In this document: one piece after another, positions 50,786 through 64,000 of the stretch | How positions within the stretch are numbered: position 1 is the stretch's first letter | Layout: every line of letters begins with the position of its first letter | DNA from: Methylocystis sp. ATCC 49242 | Lineage (GTDB): Bacteria; Pseudomonadota; Alphaproteobacteria; Rhizobiales; Beijerinckiaceae | Length of the DNA stretch: 64,000 nt | Direction: 5' to 3' | Assembly (NCBI RefSeq): GCF_000188155.2 | Contig: NZ_KE124774.1 | Coordinates: 2,114,356 to 2,178,355 of the forward strand | Notes under the pieces: generated by a model | What the model saw: the letters and a program-made list of their open reading frames with translations, nothing else | The model's database searches: none | What the model was told of the DNA's origin: nothing | Position numbers and translations under genes: made by a program

Positions 50786-51067
50786 TAGATTTTTCAAATA
50801 GAGTCCGTAGTAGGATCTATTTAGCGATACCACCTCGCTGCGCCGTCCGTCACTCAGATGAACATCAAAACTTCCGCTTACCGCGATCACGACTTGCTCC
50901 AACTCTTTATGGGCATGACCACCGCGAAACGATCCGCCAGGTACGTCGTAGAGATAATATACGCGGCTGATTCCAAACGAGATATTCCGAGATCCTTCGA
51001 TAAAGGTAAGGTTCCCGCGACGGTCGTTGACGATCGGAAAACGCAACAATTCCCACGAGCCAGACAT

Positions 51068-51791
51068 CGTCTTTCCTAATCGTCTTCATTCCTCAAGAAT
51101 CTCACGTGATCCGATCTCGGAGAGGAGACCAATCTAGACCCCGGAAAGGCTGAACCAATGTGAGTAAATCAGCGTGAACCCCAGGGATATTTCCAGCAAG
51201 TGGTAGGACTCCTCCACACCACGTTGGCCGGCGGCCCTGGCGACGACGAATCGGAAACGACTGTAAAGCGAACAATTGTTGCGAGGCACGGTCGTCTCCT
51301 CCACGGCACGCACTAAAGATACTTAACTGAATATCAAAGCTTGAGACGGCTGCAAATGTAAATCACTTGTTACCCATCCCCATTTTTGCGACTCGGGTCT
51401 TTGCGCGCTGGAACCGGGGTGTCGAGGTTTGTCTGGAAAGGGTTTGCGCCGATGAACCTCGCGATGTCGACAGTCGTGTGCACAATTGATTTGGCCTGTG
51501 CTGCCTAAATGGCACGGTATCTGTTGGCTGCTTTTCGCCGGATTACACAGGGCCTCAGCTTTCATTCAGAGCCATTGCTGGGAGCGTTGATCTCGCCGGG
51601 TTGATCGCAAAAGATCAGATGCGGTTCTCGCGCGCAGGCTGTTTCGGCTTGCGGCTGATGGGCCGGGCGGCATCCTCTCGCCACACCTAGAATATCCGTG
51701 AGTTGCCAATCGAGCGCGGACTTTTTGTTGGCGACGGTCGCAGCCTTGAAAGTGGCGATGTCTGCGGCCAGATCGGATGTGAACTGATGGG
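51068..51791. other. Region upstream of glycan operon
   Basis: No gene recognised. The part near 51070-51300 should contain the operon promoter on the minus strand. From about 51340 onward the sequence has the look of old mobile-element ends, including TGTAAATCACTTG and ATTTTTGCGACTCGGGTC-like stretches, but no open transposase. Confidence 0.4.
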
Positions 51792-51865
51792 GTGGATGCC
51801 CCCTCCACCCAGCATTGTGTGATGCTGGGTCGGCGCCGGGAGGCGCAGTTATGGAGGACGTGCAT

Positions 51866-52880
51866 ATGTCTGAAGTTCATGTTTTGGCGATCGATTTGGC
51901 GAAACGCAGTTTTCAGCTTTGCGGGACGGATCGCGGTGGGGCGGTTCTGTTCAATCGGACCGTGTCTCGTTCGAAACTCGAGCAAATCCTCCGGGCGCAG
52001 CCGCCCTGCATCGTCGCGATGGAAGCCTGCGCGACGAGCCATTACTGGGGCCGAATGGGAGTTGCTTGTGGACACGAGGTTCGTCTGATCCCGCCGATCT
52101 ACGTCAAGCCGTTCGTGAAGCGTCAGAAGAATGACGCCGCGGATGCTGCGGCGATCGCCGAGGCCGCTTTGCGGCCGAACATGCATTGCGTGGCGGTCAA
52201 GAGCGCCGAACATCAGGCGCGGGCCGTCGCCTTCCGCGCCCATCAATGCTTCGTCGGACAACGCACGCAATTGATCAACGCGCTTCGCGGTCACCTGGCG
52301 GAGTTCGGACTGGTCGTCGCGAAAGGCCCCGCGAATTTGAAGTCACTCGTCGACATGATGAAGGATGAAAGCGTCGATGTCCCAGAAGCAGTGCGGGACG
52401 TCGTCCAGCTCTTCCTCGATCAGATCGAAGCGATTACTTCCAAGATCGAGGATCTGGCTCTGCGGCTCAAAAAAAGCGACGAAGGAAAACGACGAGATGC
52501 GGCGTCTTTGCACTGTCCCGGACGTTGGCCCTGTGACCGCCGGAGCCGTGCTCGCCTTCGCTCCGGACTTGCGGGCTTTTTCGAGCGGCAGAAATTTCGC
52601 CGCCTGGCTCGGCCTTGTGCCACGCCAGCATTCGACAGGCGGGAAAACCCGACTGGGGGCGGTCAGCAAGATGGGGCAGAACGATATCCGCCGGTTGCTG
52701 ATCGTCGGCGCCATGAGCAGGATCCGCTGGATCGTGCGCAAGGGCGTATTGCCCGACAATTGGCTTGGCCGCATTCTCGGCCGCAAGCCGAGGATGGTCG
52801 CAGCCGTCGCCCTCGCGAACAAAATGGCGCGCATCATCTGGGCCATGATGACCAGGGAACAGAATTACCGAATGGCGTGA
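51866..52880 (+). pseudogene. IS110-family transposase with A7 frameshift
   Basis: The N-terminal DEDD part (HVLAIDLAKRSFQLCGTD, CIVAMEACATSHYWGR, RQKNDAADAAAIAEAA) reads from 51866. At A7 (52469-52475) the coding frame changes, and the transposase_20 part (LCTVPDVGPVTAGAVLAFAP, NFAAWLGLVPRQHSTGGKTR) continues to 52880. With one A fewer the frame would be continuous (LKKATKENDEMRRL). It may be dead or rescued by slippage. A truncated inverted piece of the same element lies at 61880-62030. Confidence 0.82.
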
Positions 52881-53144
52881 TCCGCGAAAGCCCAACCGGG
52901 CGCGAAGCGGAAAAGCGCTGACAGGGCCGGCGTAGCGCCGGTTCCGGCGAGGAGATCGACCGACGACATATGCGGCAAGGACTTCAATGTTCAGAATGGG
53001 GAAAGCCGGTCCCGGGGCTCGAGCCAACCAAGCTCTCTGGTAAGGCCGTATGTCCGCTTCTGCGACTGAGGTAGCTCGCTCTACGCTGTGCGAGCGAGGG
53101 TTGCTCGGTGTTCCGAGCCGAGCCTCAGCGCAGGAGAGCGAGCC

Positions 53145-54254
53145 ATGGAGCGGTCTACAGAAATTTTTGTTGGGATCGACGTTTCGAAGGCGCGCAATGC
53201 GATTGCCGTCGTCACGGAGGGACGCAGCGGCGAGGTGCGTTATGTCGGTGAAGTTGACTCCTCCGTCGACAGTATGCGTCGCTTGATCAAGCGCATTACC
53301 GCCAAACACCCGCAGGCACATTTTTGTTATGAAGCCGGACCGACCGGCTACGGCCTGCACCGGCTCATCATTTCCATGGGGTTCGCTTGCTCCGTCGTGG
53401 CGCCCTCGCTCATTCCGCGCAAGCCAGGCGATCGGGTCAAGACCAACCGGCGCGACGCCGTTGCGCTCGCCAAGTTGCTTCGAGCCGGGGAATTGACTGC
53501 TGTGTGGGCGCCGGACGAAAGCCATGAAGCGATGCGCGATCTGGTGCGCGCTCGATCCGCCGCGGTTGAAACACTGCGTGTGCATCGTCAGCAGGTGAGC
53601 GCATTCATGCTCCGTCACGGTCGGATTTTTCCGCGCAAAACGACTTGGGGCGCTCGTCATCTTCGTTGGCTGCAAGAACAAAAGTTTGATCATCCAGCCC
53701 ATCAGATCGCGCTGCAGGAGATGGTCGAAGCCGTGAGAATCTCCAAGGAGCGCGCGGAGCGGCTCGAGGCGGCGATCAAAGAGTTCATACCCCAATGGTC
53801 GCTGGCGCCTGTGGTCCGGGCGCTCCTGACATTACGCGGGATTGATCTGCTTGTGGCAGTCACCTGCGCCACGGAGCTCGGCGATTTAAGCCGTTTCGAT
53901 AATCCGCGTCAGCTTATGGGCTATCTCGGCTTGACCCCGAGTGAACGCTCGACGGGTGACACGGTTCGTCGCGGCGGCATCACCAAGGCCGGCAACGGAC
54001 GTGTCCGGCATCTGCTGATTGAAAGCGCCTGGACCTACCGTCATCCGCCAAGGGTCGGAAAAGAGAAGCTCTACAAAATTGAAGCCGCGCCGCCGCGCGT
54101 AAGAGAGATCGCGTGGAAAGCGCAGAGTCGCCTTACAGCTCGCTATCGCGCACTCAGCGCACGCGGCAAAAAGACAACCGTCGTCTGCGTTGCAATTGCG
54201 CGGGAACTCGTTGGCTTCATGTGGTGCATCGCAAAGGAGGCGCAAGTCGCCTAA
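53145..54254 (+). CDS. IS110-family transposase (DEDD recombinase)
   Basis: A 369-residue protein. The DEDD RuvC-like domain shows EIFVGIDVSKARNAIAVV, CYEAGPTGYGLHRLI, and TNRRDAVALAKLLRAGEL (the two clustered Asp region); the C-terminal transposase_20 domain shows LLTLRGIDLLVAVTCATELG, LMGYLGLTPSERSTGDTVRR with a catalytic-type Ser. The start was set at MERSTEIF, as in related copies; a further 19 codons upstream are open. The enzyme cuts and joins DNA guided by an element-encoded RNA in studied IS110 members. Confidence 0.92.
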   Translation: MERSTEIFVGIDVSKARNAIAVVTEGRSGEVRYVGEVDSSVDSMRRLIKRITAKHPQAHFCYEAGPTGYGLHRLIISMGFACSVVAPSLIPRKPGDRVKTNRRDAVALAKLLRAGELTAVWAPDESHEAMRDLVRARSAAVETLRVHRQQVSAFMLRHGRIFPRKTTWGARHLRWLQEQKFDHPAHQIALQEMVEAVRISKERAERLEAAIKEFIPQWSLAPVVRALLTLRGIDLLVAVTCATELGDLSRFDNPRQLMGYLGLTPSERSTGDTVRRGGITKAGNGRVRHLLIESAWTYRHPPRVGKEKLYKIEAAPPRVREIAWKAQSRLTARYRALSARGKKTTVVCVAIARELVGFMWCIAKEAQVA

Positions 54255-54256
54255 GC

Positions 54257-54526
54257 GACGGTTGATTGTCCGCTCGCGCATGGGCGGGGACTGGATCACG
54301 GCAGGGGAATACCCGTCAGACGCTTTGTGGCCGGCGACAGCCGACGCCCGATGTAAGATAGGGAAAGCCCCAGACGCATTTTCGGGAATGCGGTAACCAA
54401 CCCGCGCATAAGAGCTTGATCACCGACGTCTTTCAGATCCAGTCCCTACCCCTGCGCGATAACCTTCCCTTGACGCTGCTGCCCGTGGCGCGAAGTCGCT
54501 CGTCAAAATTGTTGACTGCGGACATA
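54257..54526 (+). ncRNA. Candidate IS110 bridge-RNA region
   Basis: The 270-bp non-coding end of this IS110 unit follows the transposase stop. In characterised IS110 elements a non-coding end is transcribed into a bridge RNA; for the IS1111 subgroup this is the 3' end. Here an internal stretch CATAAGAGCTTGATC (54407-54421) matches 14 of 15 positions with the junction CATAAGAGCGTGATC (54523-54537), which combines the IS end and the IS66 tip. That is what a guide loop would look like. No folding was computed. The same region in copy 2 is 58954-59223 on the minus strand. Confidence 0.4.
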
Positions 54527-55423
54527 AGAGCGTGATCGGACGACCGCGTGTTGCTATGCGGCGACGGCTTGCGACATTTCACGCCGCCATTTCCACGGAA
54601 GGAGATCGTCGATCTGGTTGATCGGGTGATCGGCGATGCGAGCGATGACGTCAGCGAGCCAGGCCTCCGGATTGACGTCGTTGAAGCGCGCGGTTTCGAT
54701 CAGCGTATACATGATCGCCGCCCTTCGCCCGCCTTCGTCGGAGCCAGCGAACAGATAGTTTTTTCTGCCCAATGTAAGAGGCCTGACGGCGCGTTCAGCG
54801 GCGTTGTTTGTCATCTCGAGACACCCGTCATCCACATAGCGGGTCAAGGCCGCCCAGCGAGAGGTCGCGTAGCGGATGGCCTTGGCGAAGTCGCTCTTGC
54901 CGCTGATTTTGACCAGCGTCGCGTCGAGGAATGCGCGTCGCTCATCCAGAATGGGGTTCGCCCGCTCGCGGCGCGCGGCGACGCGCTCGGCCGGCGGTTT
55001 GCCTTTGACACCCGCTTCGATGGCAAAGAGCCGCGCGATCATTTCGAGCGCCTCGCCCGCCGCCGGTGATTTCGTTTCGATATGCACGTCGTAAATCTTG
55101 CGCCTTGCATGCGCCCAGCAGGCGACCTCCTTCAGCGGCGCCGGCGCGCCGGTTTTCAGATCGGCCTCGTAAAGGCCGCCGAAGCCCGTATAGCCGTCGG
55201 CATGGAGATGGCCGCGACAGCCCTTCAGCAAGGCATGGGCGTGCTCGGAGGCGCGGTCAGCCGAGTAGAGGTAGAAGGCAGCCGGCGGCGCCGTCGACCC
55301 ATAGGGTCTTTCATCGCGCACCGCGGTCCACAATCGGCCGGTCTTCGTCCTGCCGCGCCCAGGATCGAGCACGGGAACCGTCGGGCGAGTAGACCGAGGG
55401 GTTTTCACCCTCGGCCTCTCCCA

Positions 55424-55457
55424 GAACCGGGCGTGAGACTCTCGCCTCACCCGGCTC
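55424..55457 (-). ncRNA. Group II intron domain V
   Basis: The 34-nt segment starts GAGCCGGGTGAGGC, turns in a GAGA-type tetraloop and closes with CACGCCCGGTTC, the standard domain V shape with its AGC-like catalytic base. It lies 3 nt after the maturase stop codon. Confidence 0.85.
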
Positions 55458-55460
55458 CCA

Positions 55461-56714
55461 TCAGGCCAGCCTGCCACTTGCGCCGAGTCGCCAATGCACG
55501 AACAATCGGGGGTTTTCGCACGCGATCTTTTCGAGAAAAGCACGGGCGCGGCCCAATCGGTGGTGGAAGCGCTTGAACTTGCGCTTGATCCAGACGGCAA
55601 GCGTCTGATCGATATAACGAACCAGGGGATAGAGCGCCGAACGCGTGTATTGCCCATAGTAAGCGATCCAGCCCCGAGTGATCGGGTTCAGCTCGCGAGC
55701 GATATCGTCCAGCGTCACCTGTGTTCGTTTGCGCAACTTCAAACCTCGGATCGTGGATCGCATCGCGTTCAGCGCAGGCTTGCTCACCGCTGGCGTGAAC
55801 CCACAGAACAGAGTCTGCGAGCGTGGGCCTCTCACGGTTCGCGGCCTAAAGCAGTAGCCGAGAAAGTCAAAGGCGACATTCTCGAAATTGGCTTTTCGCC
55901 GATCATCCTTGCAATAGACGATCTTCGTCTTCGTGGGATGTAGCTCCAAGCGGCACTCCGCCATCCGAGACGCCAGCGCTTCCCATACGATCCGTGCCTC
56001 CCTCTCGGACCGGCAGTGCACCAGCCCGTCATCTGCATACCGACACCACCTCAGGTGCGGGAACGTCCGCGCCATCCAGAGATCAAACGTGTAGTGCATG
56101 AAGAGGTTAGCCAAGACCGGGCTGACGACGCCTCCTTGCGGAGTGCCGCGCGTTCGCTCAATCAATGTTCCATCCTCTTGCATCATCGGGGCCGTCAACC
56201 ATCGTTCGATGTAGAGCAGCGCCCAAGGGCACGCGACGTGTTTCCGGACAGCCCGCATCAACAGCGTGTGATCGATATTGTCGAACAGACCTTTGATGTC
56301 GAACTCTAGAACCCAATCGAATTTCCAGCATCGCTCGCGCGTGACACCGACAGCATCAAGCGCCGATTTGTCGGGCCGATAGCCGTAGGAATCCGCTAGA
56401 AAGATCGCGTCCAGAGCCGGCTCAATGATCTCCTTGACAACCGTTTGCGCCACGCGGTCGGCTACGGTCGGGACTCCAAGGATTCTCTGCCCTCCACTCT
56501 TCTTGGGAATGGAAACAGCACGCACTGGCGGCGGGAAGTATGCGCCAGAGCTCATTCGATTCCAGATTTTGTAGAGGTTGCCCTTCAAATCCTTCTCGAA
56601 CTGCTCGATCGTCACGCCATCGACGCCGCCCGCGCCCTCCTTGGACCGCACCTCCAGATATGCTTCGTATACTTGATGCTTGTCGATCAAGAACGGCTTG
56701 CTTGGCGGGTTCAT
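55461..56714 (-). CDS. ltrA: Group II intron reverse transcriptase/maturase
   Basis: A 417-residue LtrA-type protein. RT blocks are in order: GAGGVDGVTIEQFEKDL, PPVRAVSIPKKSGGQRILGV (RT1-2), DSYGYRPDKSALDAV, WVLEFDIKGLFDNIDH (RT3), RGTPQGGVVSPVLANL (RT4), RWCRYADDGLVHC with the catalytic YADD, and ELHPTKTKIVYC. The maturase (X) domain follows, with NPITRGWIAYYGQY. No C-terminal HNH endonuclease is seen, so it belongs to the endonuclease-lacking kind. It promotes splicing and retrohoming of its own intron. Confidence 0.95.
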   Translation of the reverse strand: MNPPSKPFLIDKHQVYEAYLEVRSKEGAGGVDGVTIEQFEKDLKGNLYKIWNRMSSGAYFPPPVRAVSIPKKSGGQRILGVPTVADRVAQTVVKEIIEPALDAIFLADSYGYRPDKSALDAVGVTRERCWKFDWVLEFDIKGLFDNIDHTLLMRAVRKHVACPWALLYIERWLTAPMMQEDGTLIERTRGTPQGGVVSPVLANLFMHYTFDLWMARTFPHLRWCRYADDGLVHCRSEREARIVWEALASRMAECRLELHPTKTKIVYCKDDRRKANFENVAFDFLGYCFRPRTVRGPRSQTLFCGFTPAVSKPALNAMRSTIRGLKLRKRTQVTLDDIARELNPITRGWIAYYGQYTRSALYPLVRYIDQTLAVWIKRKFKRFHHRLGRARAFLEKIACENPRLFVHWRLGASGRLA

Positions 56715-58071
56715 CGACGTCCTCCTGTCGCCAGTTGCGTCAACGATCCGCCGACCTGATCCGACCCCTTTGCTCCGGCCCCGTTACGGGCGTTCATCGC
56801 TACTACGAGCCGGTCCGTCCCAGCGCTCCGCGTCGGTACTCTCGCCTCGCGGTTTTCTCCGCTTGTGCTTCTCCCTTTGCATCGGAGCGGCTGGTTCCTG
56901 CAGTTCCACGGCAACGCCTGCATCCGCTTCACGCCCCCTCAACGCCGGTCGTCGCTCGCCCAGTCATCAGGCATCCGGCGAGCTGATCCCAGAGGGACGA
57001 CACACCCCTGGTTTTGACGACGCCTTCCACGTCACGACGCTTCATCGGTGGGTTCATTTTCATTCGTCTCTCGGACGCATACCTGTTCAAGGTGCTCCTT
57101 GAACTTTGGCTCCAACGCTCACGACCACGCCTCTTTAACGCAGCCGCTTGGAGTGGTTTGAGACCCGCTCCTGAAAGCCGATCCCGAGGGGCCGTCCCTC
57201 ATCGTTACCGCAGCTTCAGCGCACAGAAGTTCAGACCATGACGATCATCCTTTCTGCGTGCCTCTGCAGCACACTATCGTCCGCGTGAACGGCGCAGCCG
57301 GCGCGCACATGACGCGCGATGCGCTGGGCCAACGGCTCCAGCAGCGCCGCCATATGGCCGACCCAGCCGGCCATGACCGAGCGGTCGATCGTCACGCCCT
57401 CGCGAGCGTAAATGCCGGATTGGCGATGCAGCGGAAGATGATCGCAATATTTGGAGACGATCACATGAGCAAGCAACGCCGGCCCCGGCCGTCCCTTCTC
57501 GATTGGCAGCGTCGGCATGGGCGCCTGAACGATCGTCTCGCAGGCGCGGCAGCTCATCTTCGGCCGCACATGCATCACGCGCTTGAAGTGCGAGGCGACG
57601 TATTCCAGCACGTCCCGCTCGTCGGCGCCTACCGGTCCGAATTTGTTCCCGCCGCAGGTCGGGCAGACGCAGGGCGCGTCGTGGACGATCGTCTCGAGCG
57701 GGAGATGATCGGGCAGAGGAACGCGAACGGACGGCTTCTTCTTCGGCGTCGATGACGAACCGCCGCTCTCGACCGCTTCGCTCCTCGCCTGCCGCTCGGC
57801 GTCGCTCTCTTCCATGTCGCCGATCAGCAGTTCGAGCTGTTCGATATCCCGATCGAGCTTTTCCGACGAACGCCCGAAGCGTGCGCGCCGCAACACGGCG
57901 AGCTGCATTTTCAGCTTCTCGATCAGCAGTGTTTTGGCGTGAACTTCCGCGGCGAGCGCCTCCGCGAAACGCCGCAGTTCGGCGGGGTCTTCGGGCAAAT
58001 CGGCAGCGGCGCGCGACATGGTTTCATCTATCACGAAACACGTGACGGCGCAGCTCAATAATGAATGGATT

Positions 58072-58428
58072 CTACAGGAAGGCCGGGCGCTCCGGCGCTT
58101 CTGGCGCAACCGTCCGCCGCCAGTCGATCCCTTCGATCAGCAAGGCCAGCTGCGCCGCCGTCAACTGCAGCGCACCCTCGACGATCGGCGGCCAGACGAA
58201 CTTTCCCTTCTCCAGCCGCTTGGCGAAGAGACACAGGCCTGACCCGTCCCAGGTCAAAATCTTCACGTAGTCGCCGCGCTTGCTGCGGAACACGAAGGCC
58301 GCGCCAGAAAAAGGATCGTTACGCAGCACCTGCGCCACGTCGGCGGCGAGCCCATCGAAGCCGCGCCGCATGTCGACGGGCTTCAACGCCAGATAGACCT
58401 TCATCCCCGGTGCGAACTGAAGCATCAA
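58072..58428 (-). CDS. tnpB: IS66 accessory protein TnpB
   Basis: A 118-residue protein of the IS66 Orf2 family, with the conserved MLQFAPGMKVYLALKPVDMR start, GFDGLAADV, GAAFVFRSKRGDYVKILTWD and GLCLFAKRLEKGKFVWP. It is required with TnpA for IS66 transposition. Overlaps tnpA by 4 nt and precedes tnpC. Confidence 0.95.
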   Translation of the reverse strand: MMLQFAPGMKVYLALKPVDMRRGFDGLAADVAQVLRNDPFSGAAFVFRSKRGDYVKILTWDGSGLCLFAKRLEKGKFVWPPIVEGALQLTAAQLALLIEGIDWRRTVAPEAPERPAFL

Positions 58429-58874
58429 AGATCACCCAGCGCAGACAACACGCGGCGCAGAGCGTCCGTATCCACATCCGCGTCGAGCGACAAGCGGGCG
58501 CCATTCGGCAGGCTGACTTCCATCACACCGCGCCGCACGCTCTTGCGCGCCCCCCTCGCTGGCGTGGCGGCCATCTTCGCAACCGGTAACGACGACGGCG
58601 CCAGAGCCGGGCTCACCAGAGTTGGCTTCAACTCCAGAACCTCCACGGGAACGAAGGTTTGTGCGGCTGCGGTCTCTTTCGCCGGCGCGCGCCGACGATC
58701 CAGCCAGCCTTCGCGCGAACGCCGTAGCCATTTGAAAATCAGATTGGCGTTCAATCCGTGCCGCCGCGCAACCGCCGCTACGGACGCGCCAGACGTCAAC
58801 GCCTCCGTGACAATCCGCTGCCGTTCTTCAGGGCTCCACGTGCGCCGCTTGACGCCATCCTTCGCCGCCGACAT
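58425..58874 (-). CDS. tnpA: IS66 accessory protein TnpA
   Basis: A 149-residue protein of the IS66 Orf1 family with a helix-turn-helix: KRRTWSPEERQRIVTEALT, GASVAAVARRHGLNANLIFK and WLRRSREG, followed by a variable linker and a small C-terminal domain ending at LSLDADVDTDALRRVLSALG. First gene of the IS66 operon. Confidence 0.93.
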   Translation of the reverse strand: MSAAKDGVKRRTWSPEERQRIVTEALTSGASVAAVARRHGLNANLIFKWLRRSREGWLDRRRAPAKETAAAQTFVPVEVLELKPTLVSPALAPSSLPVAKMAATPARGARKSVRRGVMEVSLPNGARLSLDADVDTDALRRVLSALGDL

Positions 58875-58949
58875 TAGGTGTCCACCTCTTCAATGGTGGA
58901 CACCTAACCAACTCCATATGCGTTCCGGTAGGCGGTCGTCACATCACGC

Positions 58950-60440
58950 CTCTTATGTCCGCAGTCAACAATTTTGACGAGCGACTTCGCGCCACGGGCA
59001 GCAGCGTCAAGGGAAGGTTATCGCGCAGGGGTAGGGACTGGATCTGAAAGACGTCGGTGATCAAGCTCTTATGCGCGGGTTGGTTACCGCATTCCCGAAA
59101 ATGCGTCTGGGGCTTTCCCTATCTTACATCGGGCGTCGGCTGTCGCCGGCCACAAAGCGTCTGACGGGTATTCCCCTGCCGTGATCCAGTCCCCGCCCAT
59201 GCGCGAGCGGACAATCAACCGTCGCTTAGGCGACTTGCGCCTCCTTTGCGATGCACCACATGAAGCCAACGAGTTCCCGCGCAATTGCAACGCAGACGAC
59301 GGTTGTCTTTTTGCCGCGTGCGCTGAGTGCGCGATAGCGAGCTGTAAGGCGACTCTGCGCTTTCCACGCGATCTCTCTTACGCGCGGCGGCGCGGCTTCA
59401 ATTTTGTAGAGCTTCTCTTTTCCGACCCTTGGCGGATGACGGTAGGTCCAGGCGCTTTCAATCAGCAGATGCCGGACACGTCCGTTGCCGGCCTTGGTGA
59501 TGCCGCCGCGACGAACCGTGTCACCCGTCGAGCGTTCACTCGGGGTCAAGCCGAGATAGCCCATAAGCTGACGCGGATTATCGAAACGGCTTAAATCGCC
59601 GAGCTCCGTGGCGCAGGTGACTGCCACAAGCAGATCAATCCCGCGTAATGTCAGGAGCGCCCGGACCACAGGCGCCAGCGACCATTGGGGTATGAACTCT
59701 TTGATCGCCGCCTCGAGCCGCTCCGCGCGCTCCTTGGAGATTCTCACGGCTTCGACCATCTCCTGCAGCGCGATCTGATGGGCTGGATGATCAAACTTTT
59801 GTTCTTGCAGCCAACGAAGATGACGAGCGCCCCAAGTCGTTTTGCGCGGAAAAATCCGACCGTGACGGAGCATGAATGCGCTCACCTGCTGACGATGCAC
59901 ACGCAGTGTTTCAACCGCGGCGGATCGAGCGCGCACCAGATCGCGCATCGCTTCATGGCTTTCGTCCGGCGCCCACACAGCAGTCAATTCCCCGGCTCGA
60001 AGCAACTTGGCGAGCGCAACGGCGTCGCGCCGGTTGGTCTTGACCCGATCGCCTGGCTTGCGCGGAATGAGCGAGGGCGCCACGACGGAGCAAGCGAACC
60101 CCATGGAAATGATGAGCCGGTGCAGGCCGTAGCCGGTCGGTCCGGCTTCATAACAAAAATGTGCCTGCGGGTGTTTGGCGGTAATGCGCTTGATCAAGCG
60201 ACGCATACTGTCGACGGAGGAGTCAACTTCACCGACATAACGCACCTCGCCGCTGCGTCCCTCCGTGACGACGGCAATCGCATTGCGCGCCTTCGAAACG
60301 TCGATCCCAACAAAAATTTCTGTAGACCGCTCCATGGCTCGCTCTCCTGCGCTGAGGCTCGGCTCGGAACACCGAGCAACCCTCGCTCGCACAGCGTAGA
60401 GCGAGCTACCTCAGTCGCAGAAGCGGACATACGGCCTTAC
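58950..60440 (-). mobile_element. IS110-family unit, copy 2 of inverted pair
   Basis: Matches copy 1 at 53040-54530 in reverse complement over 1,491 bp. Its right (non-coding) end abuts the other IS66 tip. The outer flank, GCCGAAGA, does not match the outer flank of copy 1 (GCTCTCTG), so no 8-bp IS66 target duplication is recognisable. Confidence 0.88.
59226..60335 (-). CDS. IS110-family transposase (DEDD recombinase), copy 2
   Basis: The same 369-residue protein as at 53145-54254, intact. See that entry for motifs. Confidence 0.92.
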   Translation of the reverse strand: MERSTEIFVGIDVSKARNAIAVVTEGRSGEVRYVGEVDSSVDSMRRLIKRITAKHPQAHFCYEAGPTGYGLHRLIISMGFACSVVAPSLIPRKPGDRVKTNRRDAVALAKLLRAGELTAVWAPDESHEAMRDLVRARSAAVETLRVHRQQVSAFMLRHGRIFPRKTTWGARHLRWLQEQKFDHPAHQIALQEMVEAVRISKERAERLEAAIKEFIPQWSLAPVVRALLTLRGIDLLVAVTCATELGDLSRFDNPRQLMGYLGLTPSERSTGDTVRRGGITKAGNGRVRHLLIESAWTYRHPPRVGKEKLYKIEAAPPRVREIAWKAQSRLTARYRALSARGKKTTVVCVAIARELVGFMWCIAKEAQVA

Positions 60441-60539
60441 GCCGAAGAATCACCTTGCCAAAACGGGGGCAATGGTATGGACCCCGCCCTTGGCCTAGGC
60501 TGGGATGTCGAACTGTCACTCGCAGAGCAGGAGACGACC

Positions 60540-61571
60540 ATGCACATCGTCCGTATCGGCCTCGATCTCGCGAAATATGTTTTCCATCTTCACGGTGTTG
60601 ACGAACGCGGCAAAGTCGTTTTGCGTAAGACTTTACGCCGCCCGGCCGTTGCGCTCTTCTTCGCGAATCTTCCGCCCTGCATTGTTGGAATGGAAGCCTC
60701 GAACGGCGCGCATTATTGGGCCAAGACGTTCTCCGAGCTTGGGCATGACGTTCGATTGATCAGCCCGCAGTTCGTCACGCCATACGTAAAATCCAACAAG
60801 AATGATCGGAATGACGCCGAGGCGATCTGTGAAGCAGTCGGCCGTCCGAACATGCGGTTCGTTCCGGTCAAATCCGCCGAACAGCTGGCGATCCAGGCTA
60901 TTCATCGGATTCGCAGTCGTCTAGTCGCCAATAGGGTTAGACTTGTGAACCAGATCCGCGGCCTACTCGGCGAGCACGGCGTCGTTATTGCGCAGACCAT
61001 CGGCAATCTTCGGCGCGCTTTGCCGCGGATCGTCGACGAGGAAAGCAACGGTCTGAACAGCATTGTTCGGGAGTTGATCGGCGAATTGCGGGAGGAATTG
61101 ATCGACCTTGATAGGCGGGTCGCAATTTACGATCGCAAAATCCGGGAATTGTATCGAACAAGCGCAGCATGTCAGCGCCTCGGCATGGTCGAAGGAATTG
61201 GACCTATTACTGCGACAGCGCTGGTCGCAGCGGCTGGCGATGCAAAATGCTTCAAGAATGGACGGCAGTTCGCGGCATGGATCGGACTTGTCCCGAGACA
61301 ACGATCGAGTGGCGGCCGATCGCGGCTGCTCGGCATCAGCAAACGCGGCGACCGATATCTTCGTACCTTGCTTATCCACGGCGCACGCGCCGCCTTGGGC
61401 CGGATACGAGGGAAGCAGGATCCGAGAAGCCTTTGGCTGCTCAAAGCGCGCGAACGCCATCATCCAAATGTCGTCGCCGTCGCGCTCGCCAACAAGAACG
61501 CGCGGATCGCATGGAGCTTGCTCGCCAGCGGCATGAGCTACGATCAGCGTCTAACCGTCAGCTCGGCCTAA
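60540..61571 (+). CDS. IS110-family transposase, different lineage, intact
   Basis: A 343-residue DEDD recombinase: VRIGLDLAKYVFHLHGVDE, CIVGMEASNGAHYWAKTF, KSNKNDRNDAEAICEAVGR, then the transposase_20 part with LGMVEGIGPITATALVAAAG and FAAWIGLVPRQRSSGGRSR. The ATG at 60540 fits relatives; a longer frame upstream is an extension from the antisense of the neighbouring copy. Closer to the element at 51866 than to the 53145 type. It lies 100 bp from the outer end of IS110 copy 2. Confidence 0.92.
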   Translation: MHIVRIGLDLAKYVFHLHGVDERGKVVLRKTLRRPAVALFFANLPPCIVGMEASNGAHYWAKTFSELGHDVRLISPQFVTPYVKSNKNDRNDAEAICEAVGRPNMRFVPVKSAEQLAIQAIHRIRSRLVANRVRLVNQIRGLLGEHGVVIAQTIGNLRRALPRIVDEESNGLNSIVRELIGELREELIDLDRRVAIYDRKIRELYRTSAACQRLGMVEGIGPITATALVAAAGDAKCFKNGRQFAAWIGLVPRQRSSGGRSRLLGISKRGDRYLRTLLIHGARAALGRIRGKQDPRSLWLLKARERHHPNVVAVALANKNARIAWSLLASGMSYDQRLTVSSA

Positions 61572-61879
61572 CCGCAGCTAAGCATCCGGGAAACAGACAA
61601 CCAACGAGATTCCCACCAGCAATTGCAACGATTGGCAGTGATGGCGAAACGGTCACTCCGTCGATTCCCGAACCTGATGTGTGGACCGGCATGGCGAGAG
61701 CCAATGCCTTGGGGGCATTGAGGTGGAAGCGCGCGAAAATCCATCGAGGCTCGCGGCAAGAACTTTTTCGGCCGCATCATGAAGCCGGATATACGTCAGC
61801 AGTTGTGACCGAAAGTCGGAACTGTCAAAGCCGTTGCAATCGGGCGGGGTCCATATACATCCACACACGACCCGCCGCG

Positions 61880-62030
61880 ATCCGTCCCGCAAAGCTGAAA
61901 ACTGCGTTTCGCCAAATCGATCGCCAAAACATGAACTTCAGACATATGCACGTCCTCCATAACTGCGCCTCCCGGCGCCGACCCAGCATCACACAATGCT
62001 GGGTGGAGGGGGCATCCACCCCATCAGTTC
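61880..62030 (-). pseudogene. Inverted 5' fragment of the 51.9-kb IS110 element
   Basis: Reverse complement matches about 51785-51935: upstream leader plus the first 24 codons (HVLAIDLAKRSFQLCGTD). The match ends abruptly at both sides, directly against the next IS110 fragment on one side. Confidence 0.85.
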
Positions 62031-62487
62031 AGTTCCCCAGCCCGCAAAAGCTTGCCCAAGGCGATGGCGTCGCGGCGGTTTGTCTTGACCCGATCGCCAG
62101 GCTTTCTGGGAATCAATGACGGCGCACCGACGAGGCAGGAATAGCCAAGGGCCGAGATGACCCAATGCAGACCGTAGCCGGTCGGCCCGGCTTCATAGCA
62201 AAAGTGAACGTGCTTGTGCTTTGCGGCGATCCGCTTCACGAGGCGGCGCATGCTCTCCTCGGATGAATCGACTTCTCCGAGATAGCGCGCCTCGCCCCCG
62301 CGCTCGCCCTCGGCAATAGCGACTGCGTTCCGAGTCTTGGCGACGTCGATGCCGACAAAAACTTCTGTATAATGGTCCACGGCTCGCCCTCCTGCGTGAG
62401 GCTCGGTTCGGCCTACCCGAGCAACCCTCGGATGCGCAGATTAGGGTGAGCCACCACCTTCGCAGAAACGGACATACGGACTTACAG
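62024..62487 (-). pseudogene. IS110 transposase N-terminal fragment
   Basis: Encodes the first 118 residues (start 62380, EVFVGIDVAKTRNAVAIAEG, CYEAGPTGYGLH, TNRRDAIALGKLLRAGEL) of a relative of the 53145 transposase, then stops at the junction with the fragment above. Its left end, TAAGTCCGTATGTCC, lies against the truncated IS630 gene and again has GTAAG at the border. Confidence 0.85.
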
Positions 62488-63418
62488 ATGTTCTCCTGGG
62501 GGTTCAACTCGGGACATTTGGCCGGTAGCGGCAGGATCGTGACGTTGTGCGGAACGTCGAGCTTGTTCGTCATGTGCCATCCGGCCTGATCGAGCATCAG
62601 CACGGCATGGTTCCCGGGCGCGACGTGTCTGGCGATTTCGGCCAGGTGCAGGTTCATCGCATATGTGTCGCATTTGGGCAGGACGAGCGCCACGCCCTTG
62701 CCCTCCTTCGGCGCGATCGCGCCGAAAATATAGGTCGACGCCGTGCGCTGATCTTTCGGGGCGCTGGGGCGCGAGCCGCGCTTCGCCCAGCGCCGCGTAA
62801 TCTTGTTTTTCTGGCCGATGCGGGCTTCGTCGGCGAACCAGATTTCTATGCGGTCGGCGTCGACGCCTCTTTCGCGGCCGATCTCCTCCAGCCGCGCGGG
62901 GAAATTTTTTTGAACGCCTCGATCGCCCCGTCCTGTTGCGCGTGATGGCGCGGACGCGCCGAGAGCTTGCGATAACCCATTTTGCGCAGTTCGCGGCTCA
63001 TGGTCGTTTCGGAGACAGACAGCCGGAACTCGTCGAACAGCCATTGGCAGAGATCGACGATCCGCCAGCGCACGACGCCATGGACAGCAGCGATCGGCCC
63101 GTCTTCGACGATGCGCGCCAGAGCGGTCCGGTGCGCGTCCTGCATCAGCGACGCCGGCCCCGGCGCCTTGCGGTCGAGGAGGCCATCTGGCCCATGAGCG
63201 TTGAAGCGCAAGACCCAGTCTCGCACGATTTGCAGCGTCACGCCGCCGATCCTGGCGGCTTCGCTGCGCGGCGCCCCCTCGTAGATCGCCGCCAACGCCA
63301 GTAGCCGTCGCGCCTGCGGCCCGTCTTTCGCGCCGCGGGCCAGCACCCGAAGCCGATTCGCATCGAAATCGCCCCGCAACCGCACCGCCGCAGCCATGAC
63401 GAACCTCCATCGGTCCAT
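62488..63418 (-). pseudogene. IS630-family transposase, frameshifted and 3'-truncated
   Basis: The N-terminal HTH part starts at 63418 or the Met at 63397 (ARRLLALAAIYEGAPRSEAA, VRDWVLRFNAHGPDGLLDRK). At a run of seven A on this strand (62905-62911) the frame changes to the DDE part: IEIWFADEARIGQKNKITR, APGNHAVLMLDQAGWH and KCPELNPQENI. Sequence stops there at the IS110 border, lacking about 50 C-terminal residues. The A-run shift could be programmed, but the truncation inactivates the gene. Confidence 0.85.
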
Positions 63419-63486
63419 CGCACAGATTCAGATATTTCCCGATTTGGGAACAGGCAGTGAGTGACGCCTCGCGCCGCTTGGTATCA

Positions 63487-63668
63487 GCCCATCAACCATC
63501 ACTGCGCGTCTTAGCCGGGCATAAAGTTGCAATGTGAACATCCTTTCGGCCTCTCCATGCCCGTCGATGACATCGAGTCGCGCCTATCAGGACCGGCACA
63601 CTTTTACGCCGTCGTCACAGCGGCCCACAAAGCCGGTTCAGTGACACACTTTGCCGCCGCTAGTCATA
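63487..63668 (-). pseudogene. IS21 left-end relic
   Basis: Aligns with about 37833-38013 of the intact IS21 copy at roughly 80-85 percent by eye: the istA start region (MFTLQLYARLRRAVM), the ATG-flanking leader, the GTGTNCC subterminal repeats and the terminal TCATA. A diverged, older member of the family with the rest deleted. Confidence 0.75.
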
Positions 63669-64000
63669 AAGCAGTTTGATAGCCACGTCGCGCCCATGTT
63701 GACAACGATGGCTGGACGGCTCTACGGACGACGCCCTACTTGATCGTTACTTTTGTGCGTTGCAGTAAATTAGGCGGGTCGATTTCTCCTACGTGGGCGC
63801 CACTGGAAGCAACCATACTGGATTGAGCGTAGCGCATTGCCTGATGTAGACAATCCTATTTTCCGTTCTGGCGAAATTCATCGACATTTTGTCTCAGGGC
63901 TCTATCGCAGCCATCAGACTATCATTTAATGAAAAGGGGGGAGGAAAGGTCATTGCTTCAGAAGGTTGAGAAACGCCGGTTGACCAACCGCGACAGAGTG
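63669..64000. other. No recognisable gene
   Basis: The minus strand shows short open segments (for example LRQNVDEFRQNGK before a stop) without a known motif. It could be the end of a gene that extends outside the window. Confidence 0.4.

What the first reader, a model, noticed from the sequence alone, without database searches (positions are those of the whole stretch)
53040..60440. Mirror-image IS110 copies at both tips of an IS66 element
Two 1,491-bp IS110-type units lie as an inverted pair with their non-coding ends directly against the two IS66 tips (CGTGATSNGACGACCGC), and GTAAG sits on the outer side of each. IS66 terminal repeats commonly begin GTAA, so the simplest reading is that a site-specific IS110 inserted into both terminal repeats; since those repeats are inverted, the copies are too. 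IS1111-subgroup elements such as IS4321/IS5075 are known to target Tn21-family terminal repeats, but I know of no described IS66-tip specialist. A third IS110 fragment (62487) also has GTAAG at its border. Against a single simple event, the outer flanks lack a matching 8-bp duplication.
Basis: partly seen in the sequence, partly recalled or inferred. Interest (0 to 1): 0.75.

Follow-up and report, generated by a model that had tools for sequence, protein, structure and literature searches.

The report
RNA-guided insertion sequence targeting IS66 tips
A small jumping gene in a bacterium related to methane-eating Methylocystis seems to carry a short guide RNA that steers it into the very ends of another kind of jumping gene (IS66), which would explain why two mirror-image copies sit at the two tips of one IS66 and how one mobile element may break another.

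Summary
In detail: two identical IS110-family (IS1111-group) copies lie inverted inside the two terminal repeats of one IS66 (53040-60440). Two more IS66 copies of this genome, one of a different type, show the same. Empty IS66 copies begin GTAAG or GTAAA and carry 8-bp duplications; at four distinct sites in relatives one tip is filled and the duplication is intact, so GTAAG is the IS66's own end. Of 36 distinct left junctions (60% identity or more, own copies included) 33 read GTAAG; 20 of 27 non-own members with the GTAAG guide have IS66 genes on the inner side, against 5 of 45 with other guides. The non-coding region holds a seekRNA-like block with guides GTAAG and (A)CGCTT, the two strands of GTAAGCG; across the family guides track targets (0 of 10,000 shuffles as good), though within the GTAAG group only weakly. 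The guide marks one branch of the tree. A related group has a guide for the tips of an IS5-like element. Relative to three intact copies of its target the window pair lacks 107 bp, which accounts for its missing duplication. The kind is known (IS4321/IS5075 at Tn21 tips); ten paper searches found no IS66-tip specialist.

The parts
53043..54528 (+). Left copy of the IS1111-group element (1,486 bp, transposase on +)
   Evidence: Exact inverted repeat of the right copy; ends set from empty IS66 tips and the sub-terminal repeat ATGTCCGC/GCGGACAT
58952..60437 (-). Right copy of the same element, inverted
   Evidence: 100% identical
53145..54254 (+). Transposase, 369 aa, DEDD type
   Evidence: NF033542 IS110 family RNA-guided transposase, 262 bits; PF01548, PF02371
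59226..60335 (-). Transposase of the right copy
54300..54432 (+). Predicted seekRNA/bridge-RNA block in the downstream non-coding region (bounds approximate; mirrored at 59048-59180)
   Evidence: Conserved in relatives; RNAalifold on 74 sequences, z -9.3 against 50 column shuffles; on the 33 GTAAG-guided sequences alone z -3.0 and a different, weaker fold
54316..54325 (+). 5' target guide TCAGACGCTT (its 3' part pairs with AAGCGT of the top strand; mirrored 59155-59164)
54351..54357 (+). 3' target guide ATGTAAG (pairs with the bottom strand of GTAAG; mirrored 59123-59129)
54407..54414 (+). Donor-end-like segment CATAAGAG, same letters as the element's right end
   Evidence: The 3-nt extension equals the element's own right end at 54 of 62 distinct sites of the family (0.87; shuffled 0.29)
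53040..53044 (+). Outermost 5 bp of the IS66 tip (TnpC side), GTAAG
   Evidence: Empty tips GTAAGCGTGATC
60436..60440 (-). Outermost 5 bp of the IS66 tip (TnpA side), GTAAG on the minus strand
54531..58949 (-). IS66 interior (tnpA 58425-58874, tnpB 58072-58428, tnpC in two parts)
   Evidence: ORFs; TnpB and TnpC families were scored on the intron-less sister copy B; tnpA named by position and by similarity to annotated TnpA genes
55384..57274 (-). Group II intron in tnpC, with its reverse transcriptase/maturase 55461-56714 (ends approximate)
   Evidence: RF01999 and RF00029; TIGR04416, 410 bits; absent from sister copy B
62029..62485 (-). Decayed left end of a relative with GTAAG at its border, in an IS630-like gene (named by eye)

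Best explanation
This is an IS1111-group insertion sequence whose guide RNA is written for the tip of IS66 elements. The non-coding region behind the transposase gene carries two short guides: a 5' guide ...(A)CGCUU that pairs with AAGCG(T) of the top strand, and a 3' guide GUAAG that pairs with the bottom strand of GTAAG. Together they read GTAAGCG, the outermost bases of many IS66 tips. The transposase inserts the element after GTA, with the AG core on both sides, in one fixed orientation relative to the tip. Because the two IS66 tips are inverted repeats, filling both gives mirror-image copies. Each insertion leaves 5 bp of the tip outside and the rest inside, which should stop the IS66 from moving. 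Shown here: positions, orientation, empty sites, and guide-target match and covariation by sequence. Inferred: that the RNA is made and acts as in ISEc11 and its relatives, that IS66 is immobilised, and that the second tip was filled from the first (the two copies of pair D share four substitutions that separate them from pair A) or homogenised by gene conversion.
For: Three inverted pairs in the own genome, A (window), B and D, D around a different IS66; the six copies found (five whole, one in two pieces) are all in IS66 tips. Empty IS66 copies with perfect 8-bp duplications: C (L185, one tip GTAAAC, one GTAAGC) and L188 (GTAAGCGG both) in the own genome, L191 and L192 (GTAAGCGTGATC both) in Methylocystis iwaonis. 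Single-tip insertions with the duplication intact at four distinct sites: CTTTCGAC (L038), GTCGATCC (L152/L173), GTACGTAG (L159), TCTTGACA (L180/L181). Left junction GTAAG at 33 of 36 distinct sites, own copies included. Right flank starts CG in 30 of 32 resolved rows, duplicates included. Inner-side IS66 genes in 20 of 27 non-own GTAAG-guided members against 5 of 45 other-guided (Fisher 7e-8) and against 3 of 27 on the outer side. Guide-target coupling at 62 distinct sites (68 of 122 hits kept): 5' guide, n=53, mean contiguous pairs beyond the core 2.74 against 0.75 shuffled, 0 of 10,000; one site per distinct guide, n=31, 3.19 against 0.60, 0 of 10,000; 3' guide, n=59, 2.27 against 0.99, 0 of 10,000. 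The order of the guides (top-strand match 5' of bottom-strand match) is that of IS1111 seekRNAs (PMC11187229, section 9). The GTAAG guide falls in one branch of the tree, SH-aLRT 99, with one exception.
Against: The guides account for only 7-8 bp, which by simple arithmetic (2 x 4.73 Mb / 4^7, equal base use assumed) should occur some 580 times in the genome, so something beyond the guides, or selection, must restrict insertion; not tested. Empty IS66 copies with a matching GTAAGCG tip exist in the own genome (L188, one tip of C) and at L038 and L180. Seven of 27 non-own GTAAG-guided members have no detectable IS66 gene inside (L049, L151, L157, L165, L167, L168, L172); L151 sits at AGAAG/CGTCATGG and L168 beside a hairpin. 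Within the GTAAG group the 5' guide tracks the target only weakly (n=21, 2.33 against 1.99, 31 of 10,000 shuffles as good) and the 3' guide, nearly constant there, not at all (9,645 of 10,000); in the non-GTAAG rows the 3' guide signal is modest (n=37, 1.97 against 1.49, 4 of 10,000). The window's guide mismatches the tips of pair D at the third base. Neither B nor D has an 8-bp duplication and no empty site was found for them (the right flank of B was not searched). The TnpA-side junction of A and B, and that of L156, carries one extra G. The fold that presents the guides was found on the mixed set only. No transcript or activity data.
Confidence: 0.92

Rival explanations
1. The target is simply any GTAAGCG heptamer; IS66 tips are hit because they carry it in many copies, or because insertions elsewhere are lost by selection.
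For: The guide match is only 7-8 bp; tips of quite different IS66 are used as long as they read GTAAGCG; two GTAAG-guided members sit at sites that do not look like IS66 (L151, L168).
Against: Six of six copies in the own genome and 20 of 27 non-own members with enough flank are at IS66, though the heptamer is expected hundreds of times per genome (arithmetic, not a call).
Confidence: 0.3
2. One insertion followed by an inverted duplication or gene conversion made the pair, without targeting of the second tip.
For: Copies within each pair are identical where compared, and the two copies of pair D share four substitutions, so copying or homogenisation within a pair is likely.
Against: The junctions fall at the same point of different tip sequences in three IS66, and single-tip insertions occur elsewhere; duplication alone does not put the copy at the homologous base of the other tip.
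Confidence: 0.05
3. The IS110-IS66-IS110 unit is a composite transposon that moves as one piece.
For: A and B contain the same IS66 with the same extra G at the TnpA-side junction, as if one doubly occupied unit had been copied; no 8-bp duplication; A lacks 107 bp of its target.
Against: Single-tip insertions keep the IS66 duplication; both outer ends are left ends of the IS110-type copies, which is not, to my knowledge, a substrate for IS1111 transposition (recalled); D has a different IS66.
Confidence: 0.08

Closest known systems
IS4321 / IS5075 (IS1111 group)
   Same: IS1111-group elements that target the terminal repeats of another transposon (Tn21 family); title and citations seen
   Different: Here the target is IS66 tips (GTAAGCG); the original paper was not held, so their guides were not compared
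ISEc11, ISKpn4, ISPst6, ISPa11 (IS1111 group with measured seekRNA; PMC11187229)
   Same: Downstream non-coding region, sub-terminal repeats with 7-bp and 3-bp extensions, two guides in the same order
   Different: Their targets are a short linear site, attC sites and REP sequences; here IS66 tips, and no RNA was measured
IS621 bridge RNA (IS110 group; PMC11208160)
   Same: Guide RNA with target and donor segments; CT core (AG as read here)
   Different: RNA lies mostly in the left end in the IS110 group, in the right end in IS1111 and here; a text search of that paper finds no mention of IS66

Membership tests
IS1111 group of the IS110 family | DEDD transposase with Transposase_20 domain | tested here: met
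   NF033542 262 bits (cut-off 140); PF01548, PF02371
IS1111 group of the IS110 family | Sub-terminal inverted repeats with 7-bp left and 3-bp right extensions | tested here: met
   ATGTCCGC / GCGGACAT with those extensions; rule from PMC11187229
IS1111 group of the IS110 family | Long non-coding region downstream of the transposase gene | tested here: met
   About 275 bp behind the stop against about 100 bp in front
IS1111 group of the IS110 family | seekRNA with a top-strand match 5' of a bottom-strand match of the target | tested here: met
   By sequence and covariation only; the RNA itself was not measured
IS1111 group of the IS110 family | Insertion without added bases at the target | tested here: inconclusive
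   TnpC-side tip of A and the filled tip of L038 agree with empty tips; one extra G at the TnpA-side tips of A and B and at L156
IS1111 group of the IS110 family | Circular intermediate | not testable with these tools
   Needs reads or PCR
IS4321/IS5075 subgroup | Targets Tn21-family terminal repeats | tested here: not met
   Targets are IS66 tips
IS66 (the host element) | tnpA, tnpB, tnpC genes; GTAA tips | tested here: met
IS66 (the host element) | 8-bp target duplication | tested here: inconclusive
   Perfect in four empty copies and at four single-tip sites; absent from A, B and D; at A 107 bp of the target are missing

The most novel reading that the evidence does not exclude
The guide RNA gives only a 7-8 bp address, so the element may recognise IS66 tips in a special state, for example tips bound and paired by the IS66 transposase or joined in an excised circle, so that both tips are filled in one episode. 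The clade would then be a natural RNA-guided silencer of IS66, with a related group doing the same to an IS5-like element (L075 has both tips filled).
Probability: 0.15. Interest if true: 0.75.

Novelty: new member of a known kind. Interest (0 to 1): 0.5.

Why it matters
It adds IS66 to the mobile elements that are hit at their ends by guide-RNA-carrying insertion sequences (the Tn21 case is the one I know of), and gives a set of natural guide-target pairs within one family that shows how such guides are rewritten in evolution. It predicts that the element breaks IS66 terminal repeats, and poses a sharp question: how a 7-8 bp guide leads so often to IS66 tips.

Tried and rejected
First guide reading: I took GATCACCG in the non-coding region as a guide for CGTGATC; relatives with other tips carry the same letters, so it was dropped. 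The first guide-extraction script mis-anchored the guides and compared the donor segment one base off; one search replaces it. In one search, 54 of 122 hits were dropped (no non-coding anchor, or ends not found); some kept rows look mis-registered (L153, L156, L157, L170, L054, L084, L079) and stayed in the counts. RNAalifold gave z -3.0 on the 33 GTAAG-guided and z -3.0 on the 41 other sequences, z -9.3 on all 74. I tried to explain the missing duplications by exchange of outer flanks between the three pairs: by eye no two of the six outer 8-mers match in either orientation, and for A the flanks occur together elsewhere. Empty sites for B (left flank searched) and D were not found. TSD search on L173 by script missed it because of a strict repeat threshold; the duplication was then seen. 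No Rfam family matched the guide-RNA block at gathering thresholds in 51000-64000. Full-text paper searches. Seen: PMC11187229 abstract, outline, find passages, sections 9 and 13; find passages of PMC11208160, PMC5001619, PMC12708576, PMC9208149; the rest only as listings. None of what I saw describes an IS66-tip specialist. The library lacks most subscription papers.
Full report
What is there. Window 53040-54530 and 58950-60440 form a 1,491-nt perfect inverted repeat. Each arm holds a 369-aa DEDD transposase of the IS110 family (NF033542, PF01548, PF02371). Sub-terminal inverted repeats ATGTCCGC/GCGGACAT with 7- and 3-bp extensions and about 275 bp of non-coding sequence behind the gene put it in the IS1111 group as described in PMC11187229 (passages). 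Between the arms is an IS66 (TnpB and TnpC families scored on sister copy B) whose tnpC is split by a group II intron, about 55384-57274.

Same genome. A search with the arm finds three inverted pairs, all head-out: A (window), B at C6:2066923-2075096, whose right copy is interrupted by 2,660 bp, and D at C6:3750378-3755315. B encloses the same IS66 without the intron, D a different IS66. All six copies lie in IS66 tips. The two D copies are identical to each other and differ from A at four positions. Of eight IS66 tnpB loci over the family cut-off, three are doubly occupied; C (L185) and L188 are empty with perfect 8-bp duplications; the tips of the other three were not resolved.

Empty and half-filled IS66. 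Empty tips read GTAAGCGTGATC in Methylocystis iwaonis (L191, L192; both tips), GTAAGCGG in L188 (both), and GTAAAC and GTAAGC in C. So GTAAG at the outer border belongs to IS66, and the element sits after GTA with AG on both sides. At four distinct sites the element fills one tip only and the IS66 duplication is intact around the whole: L038, L152/L173, L159 and L180/L181. One search examined 22 loci and found the duplication in four of them (L152, L159, L180, L181); the other 18 gave no hit and I did not establish why for each. In L152 and L159 the unfilled tip begins GTAAC, not GTAAG; in L038 and L180 it begins GTAAGCG and is unfilled all the same.

Relatives. One scan of genome contigs gave 80 loci (129 relatives, best 80 kept); genome searches covered 248 (family), 397 (order) and 385 (class) genomes, some shared between draws, with a strict limit; 689 plasmid records matched, of whose 60 listed I fetched 21. 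Among hits at 60% identity or more, 33 of 36 distinct left junctions are GTAAG, the others TTAAG (L040), AGAAG (L151), ATAAG (L160). Right flanks begin CG in 30 of 32 resolved rows, duplicates included; the other two are L156 (one extra G) and L157 (end not resolved). Counting distinct flanks of at least 900 bp, IS66 genes lie on the inner side in 20 of 27 non-own GTAAG-guided members, 5 of 45 other-guided and 1 of 18 unclassified, and on the outer side in 3 of 27, 0 of 36 and 2 of 30. In the own genome it is 4 of 4 distinct inner and 0 of 5 outer. Of the seven members without an IS66 gene inside, L172 and L049 still have an IS66-like tip by eye; L151 and L168 do not.

The guide RNA. PMC11187229 (section 9) reports that IS1111 seekRNAs carry a top-strand match 5' of a bottom-strand match. 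The non-coding region here has, in that order...(A)CGCTT and GTAAG. On the mixed set of 74 sequences the two segments face each other in a loop closed by a GGG/CCC stem and a second stem with C-G/T-A exchanges (z -9.3); on the GTAAG-guided set alone the predicted fold is different and weaker (z -3.0). Relatives at 53-58% identity carry other guides that match their own targets: L127 ATGCTCTA with TAGAGCAT, L130 ATCCACTA with TAGTGGAT, L047 CCTAACTA with TAGTTAGG, L053 CTAGACTA with TAGTCTAG. Over 62 distinct sites the 5' guide pairs over 2.74 bases beyond the core against 0.75 when guides are shuffled among sites (n=53), and 3.19 against 0.60 with one site per distinct guide (n=31); the 3' guide 2.27 against 0.99 (n=59); a third segment equals the element's own right extension at 0.87 of sites against 0.29 (n=62); none of 10,000 shuffles reached these. 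Shuffling does not remove relatedness; the one-per-guide count reduces it. Inside the GTAAG group the guide varies little and the signal is weak for the 5' guide (n=21, 2.33 against 1.99, 31 of 10,000) and absent for the 3' guide (9,645 of 10,000). In a tree of 91 transposases the 27 rows with the GTAAG guide fall in one branch of 32 rows (SH-aLRT 99) together with four unclassified rows and L169, which has another guide; two changes suffice if unclassified rows are left out. The branch includes Hyphomicrobiales, Sphingomonadales and a Roseomonas.

A second tip specialist. Fifteen rows with the guide CCTG(T/C)T(A/T) lie in one branch of 18 (two changes). In 10 of 13 such loci examined, the element's right end is followed by A(G/A)CAGG...CTGAA or TTGAA, a tip-like sequence. 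An IS5-like transposase gene behind it was seen in three of them (L067, L075, L077) and scored in two: NF033581, 187 bits in L067 (cut-off 140) and 96 bits, below the cut-off, for the broken frame in L077. In L075 two copies, 1,497 of 1,500 bases alike, face each other at both tips of such an element: the architecture of the window on another IS family.

The missing duplication. In the own genome the 400 bp left of the pair and the 400 bp right of it occur together at three more places, 107 bp apart (sequence read at one). Compared with these, site A carries the unit and lacks the 107 bp. An IS66-made deletion next to one end before the IS1111 elements arrived is the simplest account (inference). 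B and D remain unexplained. A and B share an extra G at the TnpA-side junction, so they may descend from one occupied copy.

What remains open. The guides specify 7-8 bp, too little for the observed preference by simple arithmetic; extra recognition or selection is needed. No RNA, circle or transposition was measured. The statement that no IS66-tip specialist was found in print rests on the ten full-text searches listed and on an open-licence library only.

Noticed in passing
window 55384-57274; L187: A group II intron splits tnpC of the IS66 in pair A but not in pair B; a 95% similar stretch lies in the tnpC of another IS66 (C6:3605882-3608083).
   Followed up: partly
L075 (and L052, L067, L068, L070, L072, L074, L077, L084, L088): A related IS110-family group sits at tip-like sequences, in three loci with an IS5-like transposase behind, in L075 at both tips as an inverted pair.
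   Followed up: partly
window 58949-58950; L190; L156: One extra G between the element's right end and the IS66 tip at the TnpA-side junction of A and B, and at L156.
   Followed up: no
window 51815-52921 and 60540-61571; L213: The pair interrupts a repeat (four places in the genome) that carries two different IS110-family genes side by side; in L213 the second gene runs into what looks by eye like the end of an IS66 tnpC.
   Followed up: partly
window 51775-51943 and 61868-62036: 169-nt inverted repeat, 98% alike, outside the finding.
   Followed up: no
L151, L168: GTAAG-guided members at sites that do not look like IS66 (AGAAG/CGTCATGGCCCGG; a hairpin), possible off-targets.
   Followed up: no
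L164 3420-3440: An IS66 tip joined directly to a truncated left end of the element in Methylocystis parvus.
   Followed up: no
L113 6001-8285: Two related IS110-family genes tail to tail about 130 bp apart in Leisingera aquimarina.
   Followed up: no
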